Notes under the pieces: generated by a model | Databases searched by the model: none | What the model saw: only the letters and a program-made list of their open reading frames with translations | What the model was told of the DNA's origin: nothing | Source: Xanthomonas fragariae | GTDB lineage: Bacteria; Pseudomonadota; Gammaproteobacteria; Xanthomonadales; Xanthomonadaceae | DNA: 64,000 bases | Assembly: GCF_017603965.1 (NCBI RefSeq) | Contig: NZ_CP071955.1 | Span: 2,046,001-2,110,000, forward strand | Direction: 5' to 3' | Translations under genes and position numbers: made by a program | Shown: positions 49,704 through 53,071 of the stretch, piece by piece | Layout: the number at the start of each line of letters is the position of its first letter | Position numbering within the stretch: the first letter of the stretch is position 1

Positions 49704-50131
49704 ATGGCCAAGCAGTTCCCCTTGTGGCTGCATAAACTCGGCTCGCCGCCCATCTTTTATCGCTTCGCCGGCATCCGCCCGTGGGCGTTGGGTCTGGCGT
49801 TGCTGCTTGGCGTGGTCGCCGCGTATGGCGGGCTGGTGGTGGCGCCGCCGGATTATCAGCAGCACGGCGCATACCGCATCATCTTCATCCACGTGCCCAG
49901 CGCCTGCATGAGTCTTTTCATCTACGTAGCAATGGGCGTGTCGGCGTTTATCGCATTGGTATGGCGAATCAAGCCGGTCGAAGTAGTGACCATGGCCTCG
50001 GCGTCGATCGGCGCGGCTCACCTCCGAGTTGCTGGTGTTGTTTCTGTCTCTGGACGTGCTCGGTCTTTACCACGCGGTGGAAGATCGCCTTTTCACCGTC
50101 ATCGACAAGCACGCAGCAACGCAGGCGAGTA
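49704..50131 (+). pseudogene. ccmC: Truncated ccmC (heme export/delivery protein of cytochrome c maturation)
   Basis: The first 105 residues are a normal CcmC start: MAKQFPLWLHKLGSPPIFYR, helix 1 and IIFIHVPSACMSLFIYVAMG, ending ASASIGAA. Then about 30 residues including the heme-handling WWD tryptophan motif (normally WGTWWVWDARLTSELV) are deleted. At about 50018 the frame shifts to LTSELLVLFLSLDVLGLYHAVEDRLF, ending IDKHAATQA near 50131. The remainder of ccmC and all of ccmD are absent, and the sequence runs straight into the middle of ccmE. Without the WWD motif and the last helices the protein cannot work. It begins 10 bases after the protease gene, so ccmA and ccmB are missing upstream as well. 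Confidence 0.9.
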
Positions 50132-50358
50132 CATCGGCATTCTTCCGGATCTGCGGATCTGTTTCGCGACAACCAATCGGTGATCGCCAATGGACACATG
50201 CAAGGAGGGCGCGTTGTCGCCGACGAGTTGTCGCCCACGAAATGATGGCCAAGCACGACGAAACCTACATGCAGAGAGAATTCAAAGAGCCGATGGCCGA
50301 AGGCCATGTCGACAAGCTGATTCCTGCCGCCGCTGTACTGCTGACTGCGCCGCGTTGA
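50132..50358 (+). pseudogene. ccmE: C-terminal remnant of ccmE with two tandem duplications
   Basis: Removing one copy of CGGATCTG (duplicated at 50146-50161) and one copy of a 14-bp unit (duplicated with one mismatch at 50213-50240) restores a single frame reading GEYIGILPDLFRDNQSVIANG, then HMQGGRVVADEMMAKHDETY and a charged tail to the TGA near 50358. These are the OB-fold strands and C-terminus of the heme chaperone CcmE, including HDETY with the conserved Tyr. The N-terminal half, with the membrane anchor and the heme-binding His, is missing because of fusion to ccmC. As it stands both duplications shift the frame, so nothing functional can be made. Confidence 0.88.
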
Positions 50359-50421
50359 TGCGATGCCGTTTGCGTTCAATCACCTCGATGGTCTCTTTTC
50401 GTGGCACCGTGCCAATGGCCC

Positions 50422-51507
50422 ATGACGCCTGAATTCGGCCATATCGCACTAATCCTGGCATTACTGCTGTCGCTTGCTCAAGGCGTGTTGCCGCTGATCG
50501 GTGTCTGGCGCGGCAACACCGCGTTGATAGGTATCGCGCGGCCTGCGGCGGTGGGTCAAGCGGTGTTTGTGTGGATGGCGTTCGGCCTGCCCGCGTGGTT
50601 GCTGCTCTGGCTGGATTTTTCGGTGCGTTCTGTTGCCGACAACGCCAACATCGCCCTGCCCTGGTATTACCGGTTTGCCGCGGTGTGGGGCGCGCACGAA
50701 GGCTCGTTGCTGCTGTGGATCGCCATACTCGCCACCTGGACGCTGTTGCTGGCGGCCTTCAGCCGGCATCTGCCCCAGCACCTTGCCGCTCGTGTCCTGA
50801 CGGTGTTGGAGCTGGTTTCGGTAGGCTTTCTGGCTTTAATCCTGCGGACCTCCAACCCATTCGGGCGGCTGTCGCCGATTCCCTTAGATGGCAACGAACT
50901 CAATCCGGTGCTGCAGGATCCGGGCATGACCTTCCACCCCCCGGTGCTGTATATCGGCTACGTTGGTTTCTCGGTGGCATTCGCGTTTACGGTGGCGGCG
51001 TTGCTGGGCGGCGAACTGGAACAGGCCTGGGTGCGCTGGGCAAGGCCATGGACCAACCTGGCCTGGGCCTGCCTTACCGCCGGCATCGTCGCCGACAGTT
51101 GGTGGGCCTATGCTGAACTGGGCTGGGGCGGCTGGGGGTTCTGTCACCCTGTGGAAAACGCCAGCTTCATGCCGTGGCTGGTCGGCACCGCCCTGATCCA
51201 CACCCAGGCCGTCACCGAAAGCATTGAGCGGATCCAGACCGAATCGGCGATCGATCCCAGCGTCACGCGCGATTTGTATGTGGCACTCGGCGAACCGCTG
51301 GACGATCAGCACATCGAATACGAGTGGACGCTGCGGTTGTATTACAAACCCTTCATTCGCTGGATCTGGGCCGGTGGTCTTTTGACGATGATGGCTGGCG
51401 TTGTCAGCGCCGGCGCACGCCGTTTCCGTGCGCCGGTTACTGCGGACAAGGCAGCCACCTCGTCGGCACACGACGCGTTTGTCATCGCACAGGAATCGCA
51501 CCCGTGA
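50422..51507 (+). pseudogene. ccmF: ccmF with internal deletion and lost WWD signature
   Basis: Heme lyase component of system I cytochrome c maturation, normally about 650 residues with some 14 helices. Here the frame is open but only 361 residues long. The N-terminal half to PWLVGTALIHTQAVTE is recognisable, then about 270-290 residues are missing and the sequence resumes near the C-terminus at AIDPSVTRDLYVALGEPLDD and ends after KPFIRWIWAGGLLTMMAG. The diagnostic tryptophan motif, usually GGWWFWDPVEN, reads GGWGFCHPVEN, so two Trp and the Asp have been replaced. A protein could be translated, but heme lyase activity is very unlikely. The start at 50422 follows the ccmE remnant. Confidence 0.88.
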
Positions 51508-51912
51508 ATCGCATGCTGCCCTTGCTGGGGCTTTTTGTTGCCGGCGGCACTGTTCGGCTTTGGCACCTACTGGACGATGCAGCACACCCTGCGCGATGTG
51601 CCCTCGCCGTTGATCGGCGAACCGGCACCGGCGTTCTCGTTGCCGCGGCTGGATCAGCCCGAGCTACGCATCAGCCGCGAGCAACTGCTGGGCAAGCCCT
51701 GCTTGATCAATGTGTTCGGCAGCTGGTGCGCCGAATGCGTGCACGAACATCCTGTACTGATGGCGCAGGCCAGCCGGCTCGGCGTGCCGGAAAGTTTCCT
51801 GATCGACGCGCAAGGCCCGATCCGCTACAAGCACATCGGCGTGCTCACGCCCGATGTTATCGACGACGAGTTGCTGCCCGCCATCGCCGCGCGACCCAAG
51901 GGCGCACCGTGA
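51504..51912 (+). pseudogene. ccmG: ccmG/dsbE thioredoxin-like protein, frameshifted and internally deleted
   Basis: The GTG start overlaps the ccmF stop (GTGA) and begins MNRMLPLLG, but an extra T in the T-run at 51532-51536 shifts the frame inside the membrane anchor. The correct continuation (LPAALFGFGTYWTMQH) is in the next frame. The thioredoxin fold follows with the active-site pair in GSWCAECVHEHP. About 45 residues are missing between QASRLGVP and ESFLIDAQG. The end KHIGVLTPDVIDDELLPAIAA is normal. The family is about 180-190 residues; about 135 remain. An internal ATG at 51535 could still produce a soluble fragment. Confidence 0.85.
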
Positions 51913-52361
51913 TGCCGTGGCGGCGTCAACTGCGCTTGATCGTGCTGTTGCTGCAAGGCGTGATGCTCGCGCCACCACTGGCTGCGCAGGCGGTGGCCCC
52001 GTTACCGTTCAAGAACCGCAGCGATGCAGCACGCTATCAACGGTTGACAGCGCAGCCCCGTTGCCTGGTGTGTCAGAACGAGAACCTGGCCGACTCCAAT
52101 GCCGAGCTGGCGCGCGATCTGCGCCATCAGGTATTTGCCCAACTCCAGGCCGGCAAGAGCGACACGCAGATCAAGCAGTACATGGTCGATCGCTATTCGG
52201 ACTTCGTGTTGTACGACCTGCCGGTCAAGCGCGGCACCTGGCTGCTGTGGTTCGTGCCGTTGTTGGTGCTGGGTGCGGGTGCGGGCGTGGTGATCCATAC
52301 AGTGCGCAAACGTGCGTGCGCCGGCACGCCAGTGGCGCCCCAAGCAGAGGAACAGTGGTGA
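51912..52361 (+). CDS. ccmH: Cytochrome c maturation protein CcmH (thiol-disulfide oxidoreductase)
   Basis: A 149-residue protein with a signal peptide-like start (LRLIVLLLQGVMLAPPLAA), the three-helix domain with the redox pair in QPRCLVCQNENLADSNAEL, YMVDRYSDFVLYDLPVK, and a C-terminal transmembrane helix (LLWFVPLLVLGAGAGVVI). All family hallmarks are present. In system I it reduces the apocytochrome heme-binding cysteines together with CcmG. The ATG overlaps the ccmG stop by one base (TGATG). It is the only member of this cluster that seems entirely intact, although its partners are broken. Confidence 0.92.
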   Translation: MPWRRQLRLIVLLLQGVMLAPPLAAQAVAPLPFKNRSDAARYQRLTAQPRCLVCQNENLADSNAELARDLRHQVFAQLQAGKSDTQIKQYMVDRYSDFVLYDLPVKRGTWLLWFVPLLVLGAGAGVVIHTVRKRACAGTPVAPQAEEQW

Positions 52362-53071
52362 TGACAGTTTTCTATTTCGCAAGCGCGACAATGGTGGTGA
52401 TTGCGCTGCTGTTGTGGCTGATGCCGCTGGTGCGCCAACCCACGCGCAATGGCGATGCACGCTACACATTGCCGATTCTATTGGTGCTCGGCTTGCCGAT
52501 CGCCACGGCCGGTCTGTATCGGCTGGTCGGTGCGCCGGATGCGATCGCACGGCGTGTGTACGCGGCGGCGCAGTCCACTGCGCAAACCGTAGCCACACCC
52601 TCTTCCACTGCCGGTGGTGAGCAAACGCAGGCCACCCACGCTCCCGATGATGCGCAGGAGCAGGCGTTGGAATCATGGATGCAGCAGGCCAAAGCGCACG
52701 AGCAGGAAAATCGCCCCGCCGACGCACGCCAGGCCTACGCGCAAGCGCTCAAGATTGCACCCGACATCAGTGCCGCCATCGTCGGCTGGGTGGCGGCAGA
52801 CATGGCAACGCGCAGCGACTTCGCTATCGATGCCGCCTCACGCACACGTCTGCAACAGGTGGTCGCACGCGAACCGGGCAATCAACGCGGTCTGTGGCTG
52901 CTCGGCATCAGCGACTTCCAGCAGCACGATTACAGCGCCGCCACCGAACATTGGCGCCACCTGCATGGCTTGCTGGACGCCGGCTCGCCGATGCAGAAAG
53001 CCGTAGCCGACAAGATCGCCGTGGCGGAATCGATGGCCAGTGCGCGTCAGTCAAAGTGTGCCTCGCACTGA
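52361..53071 (+). CDS. ccmI: CcmI-like TPR protein of cytochrome c maturation
   Basis: A 236-residue protein with two N-terminal membrane helices (TMVVIALLLWLMPLV and TLPILLVLGLPIATAGLYRL) and a TPR region (AHEQENRPADARQAYAQALKI, GLWLLGISDFQQHDYSAATEHW). CcmI presents apocytochrome c to the lyase. It is shorter than many homologues (about 300 or more), and the passage from KIAPDISAAIVG to DFAIDAASRTRLQQV looks abrupt, so an internal in-frame deletion is possible. The start overlaps the ccmH stop by one base. From 53072 to 53305 follows an AT-richer stretch with no supported gene. Confidence 0.75.
   Translation: MTVFYFASATMVVIALLLWLMPLVRQPTRNGDARYTLPILLVLGLPIATAGLYRLVGAPDAIARRVYAAAQSTAQTVATPSSTAGGEQTQATHAPDDAQEQALESWMQQAKAHEQENRPADARQAYAQALKIAPDISAAIVGWVAADMATRSDFAIDAASRTRLQQVVAREPGNQRGLWLLGISDFQQHDYSAATEHWRHLHGLLDAGSPMQKAVADKIAVAESMASARQSKCASH

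What the first reader, a model, noticed from the sequence alone, without database searches (positions are those of the whole stretch)
49704..53071. A whole cytochrome c maturation cluster caught in the middle of decay
Six ccm genes remain in normal order, but four are broken in different ways: ccmC lacks its WWD region and 3' end, ccmD is gone, ccmE is a C-terminal stub, ccmF has lost about 280 residues and ccmG has an insertion and a deletion. ccmA and ccmB are not upstream; the cluster abuts the S8 protease gene. Yet ccmH and ccmI remain open. Either another ccm set exists elsewhere in the genome, or this strain has lost system I cytochrome c biogenesis, which would have large effects on respiration.
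Basis: partly seen in the sequence, partly recalled or inferred. Interest (0 to 1): 0.75.

Follow-up and report, generated by a model that had tools for sequence, protein, structure and literature searches.

The report
Decaying spare cytochrome-assembly gene set
A strawberry-infecting bacterium is losing a spare set of cytochrome c assembly genes together with the neighbouring cytochrome genes it probably served, while its main assembly set stays intact, so this is gene decay rather than loss of an essential pathway.

Summary
In detail: at 49704-53071 ccmC, ccmD, ccmE, ccmF and ccmG are broken or gone, and ccmH and ccmI are open. The organism is Xanthomonas fragariae. Its chromosome also carries ccmABCDEFGHI with no internal stop in any of the nine frames, so system I is not lost. 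The broken set is an accessory one. Its orthologues lack ccmAB: 0 of 30 loci show a CcmA or CcmB match. In relatives it ends a conserved block: a Cyc2-like fused cytochrome-porin, a class I cytochrome c, a TorF-like porin, an ECF sigma factor, an anti-sigma factor, an S8 protease, then ccmCDEFGHI. Here the cytochrome-porin gene is absent and only residues 56-100 of the cytochrome c are recognisable. Among 35 genomes of the genus, 32 hold both cytochrome genes near full length and two full-length CcmF_C domain matches; the other three do not. A sister genome shares four lesions, so decay began in a common ancestor and continued separately. Best reading: relaxed selection on an electron-conduit and maturation module in a reduced genome. 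That the set serves these cytochromes is inferred.

The parts
45860..45933 (.). Junction where, relative to X. arboricola (G001), about 3.7 kb is missing, including the whole cytochrome-porin gene and the 5' part of the cytochrome c gene
45938..46072 (+). Remnant of a class I cytochrome c gene (residues 56-100 of 129; heme motif lost; 3' end deleted in common with the sister genome)
46189..47064 (+). TorF-like putative porin gene, open frame (start uncertain; family score below the curated cut-off)
   Evidence: dN/dS
47116..47709 (+). ECF sigma factor gene, intact
47703..48368 (+). zf-HC2 anti-sigma factor gene, intact
48365..49693 (+). S8 (subtilase) protease gene, intact
49704..50089 (+). 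ccmC remnant (3-bp in-frame loss, internal 80-bp deletion with frameshift; 3' part lost)
50090..50357 (+). ccmE C-terminal remnant with 1-bp loss and 8-bp and 14-bp insertions; ccmD lies in the preceding deletion
50422..51507 (+). ccmF with in-frame loss of 301 codons at 51219/51220
51504..51912 (+). ccmG remnant with a 1-bp insertion and a 135-bp deletion (the deletion is shared with the sister genome)
51912..52361 (+). ccmH, open frame, constraint probably relaxed
52361..53071 (+). ccmI (TPR protein), open frame

Best explanation
This is the pseudogenised copy of an accessory cytochrome c maturation set, ccmCDEFGHI without ccmAB. In most Xanthomonas it forms the 3' half of a module whose 5' half encodes a Cyc2-like cytochrome-porin, a class I cytochrome c, a TorF-like porin, an ECF sigma/anti-sigma pair and an S8 protease. 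The likely working of the intact module (inferred): the sigma factor switches it on, the extra CcmCDE/FGHI add heme handling and ligation capacity for the two cytochromes, CcmAB is supplied by the main operon, and the cytochromes pass electrons across the outer membrane. In X. fragariae and its sister the clients and the maturation genes both lost selection. Decay began in the common ancestor (cytochrome c 3' deletion, ccmE frameshift and insertion, ccmG deletion) and went on separately in each lineage. The main ccmABCDEFGHI operon is intact and carries the essential job. Shown: redundancy of gene content, orthology, shared and private lesions, co-loss, absence of AB. Inferred: client relationship, trans use of CcmAB, sigma control, electron-conduit function.
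For: Main set intact: CcmA, CcmB, CcmC, CcmE, CcmF and CcmG each score above the cut-off of at least one matching family model, CcmH matches its family below the cut-off, CcmD and CcmI were not scanned, and none of the nine frames has an internal stop. Orthologous accessory set without ccmAB: 0 of 30 loci give a CcmA or CcmB match at E 1e-8, although one of the 30 (L065) is cut by its contig end and tells nothing. Genus survey of 35 genomes: near full-length cytochrome-porin in 32, near full-length cytochrome c in 32, two full-length CcmF_C matches in the same 32; G000, G019 and G003 are the exceptions for all three. Sister genome G019: shared 1-bp ccmE loss, 8-bp ccmE insertion, 135-bp ccmG deletion and cytochrome c 3' deletion; private deletions of 850 bp and 1439 bp there versus 80, 712 and 903 bp here. 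dN/dS between the two: ccmC/F/G pieces 0.63 (0.35-1.21), ccmH+I 0.41 (0.23-0.75), flanking genes 0.18 (0.12-0.25); in three intact species pairs ccmC/F/G 0.08-0.17, ccmH+I 0.185-0.207, flanking genes 0.10-0.13. Family draw of 198 genomes: 16 with both a cytochrome-porin match and a second CcmF_C match, 3 with the first only, 4 with the second only, 175 with neither.
Against: A dedicated need is not proven: each of the 20 family-f12 genomes searched that have a close cytochrome-porin gives only one CcmF match, and in the f12 loci read (7 of those 20) no ccmC-H gene was found beside the module, though one of the seven (L121) ends about 0.6 kb after S8. Both client motifs are ordinary CXXCH, which the main set should handle. 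ccmI constraint in the broken pair (0.29, 0.12-0.67) does not differ clearly from four intact pairs (0.20-0.24), so ccmI, and perhaps the sigma/anti-sigma/S8 part, may still work; flanking genes also score somewhat higher in this close pair (0.18 against 0.10-0.13), so part of the rise may reflect short divergence. Genomes are related, so the co-occurrence counts are not independent. Sigma control was not tested at all.
Confidence: 0.8

Rival explanations
1. Plain redundancy decay: the accessory set was a superfluous copy of the main system with no special clients, and it decayed by drift in a shrinking genome; loss of the neighbouring cytochrome genes is coincidental.
For: An intact main set exists, two members of a second genus (G142, G213) have only one CcmF_C match, and 20 of 20 f12 genomes searched keep the cytochrome-porin with one CcmF match.
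Against: The three genus members without a working accessory set also lack working cytochrome-porin and cytochrome c genes, and the 32 others keep all; the genes are adjacent in the loci read from both Xanthomonas-type genera; purifying selection acts on the set elsewhere.
Confidence: 0.17
2. The strain has lost system I cytochrome c maturation altogether.
For: Only the broken locus, taken alone.
Against: Complete second operon without internal stops and with family matches for CcmA, B, C, E, F, G and H.
Confidence: 0.01
3. The remaining open genes (ccmH, ccmI, S8 protease, sigma and anti-sigma factors, TorF-like porin) are a retained working remnant with another role, and only the cytochrome branch was discarded.
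For: All are open in both X. fragariae and the sister genome; TorF, sigma, anti-sigma and S8 keep dN/dS of 0.06-0.28; a CcmI-like gene follows S8 in L124 with no other ccm gene found there.
Against: ccmH shows 13 nonsynonymous and 7 synonymous differences (dN/dS 0.60, 0.26-1.95) against 0.06-0.14 in four intact pairs; low divergence gives wide limits.
Confidence: 0.25
4. Assembly or sequencing artefact.
For: None found.
Against: Four lesions shared with a separate genome of a sister lineage, and deletions of up to 903 bp with clean junctions.
Confidence: 0.01

Closest known systems
System I cytochrome c maturation (Ccm, CcmABCDEFGHI)
   Same: Of 30 orthologous loci, 29 show the CcmC and CcmF WWD motifs, the CcmE KHDETY motif and the CcmH thiol motif, and 21 the stricter CcmG pattern searched; a CcmI TPR protein follows (motif roles recalled)
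   Different: No ccmAB in the cluster; it is a second set beside a full one; in this window five of seven genes are broken or gone
NrfEFG-type dedicated heme lyases (role recalled; NCBIfam scores CcmF and CcmH here against NrfE and NrfF)
   Same: An extra CcmF/CcmH-type set beside particular cytochromes
   Different: Includes CcmCDE and CcmGI; its neighbours are a mono-heme porin and a class I cytochrome with ordinary CXXCH, not NrfA; the NrfE/NrfF scores of the window's proteins lie below the curated cut-offs
Split ccmAB and ccmCDEFGHI operons (Magnetospirillum gryphiswaldense, PMC9549626, passages seen)
   Same: ccmCDEFGHI as its own unit apart from ccmAB
   Different: There the two are named as the ccmAB and ccmCDEFGHI operons; here the unit is additional to a full ccmABCDEFGHI operon
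Cyc2 fused cytochrome-porin (PMC8406198, passages seen)
   Same: The neighbouring gene in relatives has the AXPXFAR[QK][TY] motif, one CXXCH and a 16-strand barrel prediction, and is followed by a small cytochrome c, as in the A. ferrooxidans cyc2-cyc1 order
   Different: Iron oxidation untested; linked to ECF sigma, S8 protease and ccm genes; spacing of the motif differs slightly; absent in this window
Reductive genome evolution of X. fragariae (PMC4046712: title, start of abstract and search passages seen)
   Same: Gene decay in a small, host-specific Xanthomonas genome
   Different: A term search of its main text found no occurrence of ccm, cytochrome or heme

Membership tests
System I Ccm (functional set) | CcmC with WWD heme-handling motif | tested here: not met
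   Lost in this window; present in 29 of 30 relative loci
System I Ccm (functional set) | CcmE with heme-binding histidine region | tested here: not met
   Only a frameshifted C-terminal stub remains
System I Ccm (functional set) | Full-length CcmF heme lyase | tested here: not met
   301 codons missing in frame
System I Ccm (functional set) | CcmAB ATPase and heme translocase in the set | tested here: not met
   No CcmA/CcmB match in 30 orthologous loci; present in the main operon
System I Ccm main operon of the same genome | All of CcmA-CcmI open and recognisable | tested here: met
   CcmD by reading frame and position only, CcmI by frame, position and a 30% match; CcmH below its family cut-off
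Cyc2 fused cytochrome-porin (neighbour gene in relatives) | Single CXXCH near the N terminus | tested here: met
   120 of 120 listed homologues have exactly one (365 homologues passed, the best 120 were listed); position near the N terminus seen in the 11 printed
Cyc2 fused cytochrome-porin | AXPXFAR[QK][TY] motif just upstream of CXXCH and PXL downstream | tested here: met
   Motif and PXL seen in the X. arboricola and X. hortorum proteins, with spacings of 3 and 5 residues rather than the 5 and 4 stated in PMC8406198; several members outside Xanthomonas have Y for F
Cyc2 fused cytochrome-porin | 16-stranded outer-membrane barrel | tested here: inconclusive
   16 strands in a low-confidence model (mean pLDDT 64.9, pTM 0.66); the top structural matches listed are outer-membrane barrels, mostly porins, best E 5.4e-10 but TM about 0.44; no Pfam or NCBIfam family matched
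Cyc2 fused cytochrome-porin | Oxidises Fe(II) | not testable with these tools
   Needs biochemistry

The most novel reading that the evidence does not exclude
Xanthomonads carry a dedicated second cytochrome c maturation line, whose CcmF is most like the single CcmF of the Luteibacter/Dyella family, bolted to a Cyc2-like outer-membrane electron conduit under an ECF sigma factor. It lacks CcmAB by design and borrows these from the main operon, perhaps because surplus CcmB is harmful (reported for Shewanella, abstract and outline of PMC11868835 seen). Client cytochromes and machine are kept or lost as one unit, and X. fragariae is a snapshot of that loss.
Probability: 0.4. Interest if true: 0.6.

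Novelty: new variant of a known kind. Interest (0 to 1): 0.42.

Why it matters
It removes a false alarm (loss of cytochrome c biogenesis) and replaces it with a testable idea: a second, AB-less Ccm set specialised for a fused cytochrome-porin. A natural series of intact, half-decayed (X. fragariae, G019) and absent (G003) states shows the order in which some of the parts die. If the client link holds, it gives a natural system for asking what CcmAB does that CcmCDEFGHI cannot, and why plant-associated xanthomonads keep, and some specialists drop, a Cyc2-like conduit.

Tried and rejected
Loss of the whole pathway: rejected after the intact operon was read. ccmAB lost from this locus: rejected, no CcmA/B in 30 orthologous loci. 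Sequencing error: rejected by shared lesions. Open ccmH/ccmI as proof of function: not supported, constraint looks relaxed but the limits are wide. A first dN/dS run used wrong frames for ccmF and the KaiC-like gene and unmatched columns for several pairs; one search replaces it. In one search the row for the longer ccmF piece runs past the sister genome's deletion and was not used for the pair with G019. A strict 'cytochrome-porin needs ccm2' rule: rejected by 20 of 20 f12 genomes with one CcmF match. The ccm passages shown from PMC2754497 were culture-collection names, not genes. The passages seen in PMC5488342 deal with a DsbD-like gene, not this cluster; those in PMC6113873 were irrelevant. 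Literature searches for an accessory Xanthomonas ccm set (16 of 16 listed; 20 of 45; 12 of 107; 12 of 69) and for Cyc2 in Xanthomonas or with ccm (1 of 1; 2 of 2; 15 of 23) listed no paper whose title or abstract start describes this module; only open-licence papers are held, and most listed papers were not opened.
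Full report
What is there. The window lies in a 4.1-Mb genome of two contigs. The first 20,000 of 20,156 bases of the small contig are 100% identical to plasmid NZ_CP082179 of Xanthomonas fragariae, a strawberry pathogen with a small genome (PMC4046712: title, start of abstract and search passages seen; PMC10773614: passages seen). At 49704-53071 the protein-family scans find CcmC, CcmF, CcmG, CcmH and CcmI in order.

How it is broken. An alignment with 24 orthologous loci of Xanthomonas shows a 3-bp in-frame loss and an 80-bp deletion in ccmC, a 706-715 bp deletion that removes the ccmC 3' end, ccmD and the ccmE 5' part, a 1-bp deletion plus 8-bp and 14-bp insertions in ccmE, a 903-bp in-frame deletion in ccmF, and a 1-bp insertion and a 135-bp deletion in ccmG. 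Each of the 24 relatives carries the missing bases at each of these deletions. The WWD region left in ccmF also carries substitutions, as the translation shows against the motif found in 29 of 30 relative loci. ccmH and ccmI are open.

The pathway is not lost. In the same chromosome at about 1478676-1485660 there is a full ccmABCDEFGHI operon. CcmA, B, C, E, F and G reach at least one family cut-off, CcmH matches below it, CcmD and CcmI were not scanned, and no frame contains an internal stop.

The broken set is an accessory one. In the genus, 33 of 35 genomes have two CcmF_C matches; the second match of G000 is a stub, and G003 and G019 have one match each. In relatives the second set is ccmCDEFGHI directly after the S8 protease. 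None of 30 such loci has a CcmA or CcmB match (L065 is cut off and uninformative).

It belongs to a larger module. Reading upstream in X. arboricola (G001) gives, in order, a 450-residue protein with one CXXCH, a 129-residue class I cytochrome c, a TorF-like porin, an ECF sigma factor, a zf-HC2 anti-sigma factor, the S8 protease and ccmCDEFGHI. The large protein matches no Pfam or NCBIfam family but carries the motif reported as unique to Cyc2 fused cytochrome-porins (PMC8406198, passages seen); the motif spacing differs slightly. A low-confidence model has 16 strands, and its top listed structural matches are outer-membrane barrels, mostly porins. In family f12, seven loci of the 20 genomes with a close cytochrome-porin were read: all seven have the porin, TorF, sigma, anti-sigma and S8 genes; the cytochrome c gave no match in one (L125) and the block is split by about 6 kb in another (L121). 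f12 includes Luteibacter and Dyella, inferred from matching contig lengths. No ccmC-H gene was found next to the core there (L121 ends about 0.6 kb after S8); L124 alone has a CcmI-like gene after S8.

The module decays as a whole. In the window the cytochrome-porin has no match and only residues 56-100 of the cytochrome c are recognisable. In sister genome G019 the porin is in fragments, the cytochrome c is frameshifted and its heme histidine is replaced, and ccmC, ccmE, ccmF and ccmG are broken. In G003 the kinase genes downstream are present, but searches with the cytochrome-porin, the cytochrome c, the TorF-to-S8 DNA and CcmI find no module copy; whether G003 lost it or never had it is open. 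The other 32 of 35 genomes have both cytochrome genes near full length and two full-length CcmF_C matches. Fisher's test on 32/0/0/3 gives p = 0.00015, but the genomes are related, so this is descriptive only. In a draw of 198 family genomes, 16 have both a cytochrome-porin match and a second CcmF_C match, 3 the first only (27-32% identity), 4 the second only (this genome, G047, and two with two weaker matches that may be one split gene; not checked) and 175 neither. In a second genus of the family (g7) 6 of the 8 genomes drawn have both and 2 have neither.

Order of decay. X. fragariae and G019 share the cytochrome c 3' deletion, the 1-bp loss and 8-bp insertion in ccmE and the 135-bp ccmG deletion. 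The ccmC-E and ccmF deletions have different ends in the two genomes (80, 712 and 903 bp here; 850 and 1439 bp there), so they arose separately. Whether the cytochrome-porin was already broken in the ancestor cannot be told. dN/dS between the two is 0.63 (0.35-1.21) for the ccmC/F/G pieces, 0.41 (0.23-0.75) for ccmH+I and 0.18 (0.12-0.25) for flanking genes. In three intact species pairs the values are 0.08-0.17, 0.185-0.207 and 0.10-0.13. ccmI alone (0.29, 0.12-0.67) is not clearly relaxed, and the somewhat higher value of the flanking genes shows that part of the rise may come from short divergence.

Origin. In a tree of 46 CcmF proteins the accessory copies (11 rows from two genera) form one group (100/100), which joins the f12 copies (19 rows) with full support, apart from the main Xanthomonadaceae copies. 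The f12 rows themselves are not resolved as one group, and the tree has no outgroup. This fits transfer from an f12-like source, or an old duplication with losses; the data do not decide. Each of the 20 f12 genomes searched gives one CcmF match, so the conduit does not strictly need a second set.

Mechanism. Most likely, when intact, the accessory set adds heme delivery and ligation for the two cytochromes under sigma control and takes CcmAB from the main operon. This is inferred. Two reports make an AB-less set plausible: excess CcmB is harmful in Shewanella (PMC11868835, abstract and outline seen), and a system I plasmid with a broken ccmA was not detrimental to the yield of Cyc2 in E. coli and was beneficial to its detection (PMC8406198, passage seen). 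Neither concerns Xanthomonas. The E. coli test listed under next steps would decide.

Verdict. The decay is real and ordinary for a reduced, host-restricted genome. The new element is the intact counterpart: an AB-less accessory Ccm set linked to a Cyc2-like conduit and lost together with it.

Noticed in passing
window 43489-43639, 45165-45303, 53306-53456; L026 4357-4518 and 13981-14115: A dispersed repeat of about 150 bp, with ends that look inverted by eye, lies on both sides of the decayed module and also on both sides of the main ccm operon; possibly a small mobile element.
   Followed up: partly
window 47116-49693: Sigma, anti-sigma and S8 genes have dS 0.21-0.43 to the sister genome, against 0.05-0.08 in neighbouring genes, which suggests a recombination tract in one of the two lineages.
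   Followed up: partly
L124 12985-13620: A CcmI-like gene (40% identity) follows the S8 protease in a Luteibacter-type genome with no other ccm gene found in the 19 kb read, a hint that CcmI and the S8 protease may act together.
   Followed up: no
L116, L117 (G121, G057): Two genomes of other genera have a distant cytochrome-porin (38% and 34%) and two CcmF genes, but on other contigs than the porin; those of these CcmF proteins that were put in the tree do not fall in the accessory group.
   Followed up: partly
L060: In X. phaseoli ATCC 49119 the best piece of the accessory CcmE and of the downstream kinase covers only 62% and 56% of the query; possible further decay or frameshifts, not checked.
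   Followed up: no
L119 (G047 C1:2500000-2518000): G047 carries a second ccmCDEFGHI-like set (50-60% identity for C to H) with no match to the module's cytochrome or regulator genes and none to CcmA/B in the stretch read.
   Followed up: no
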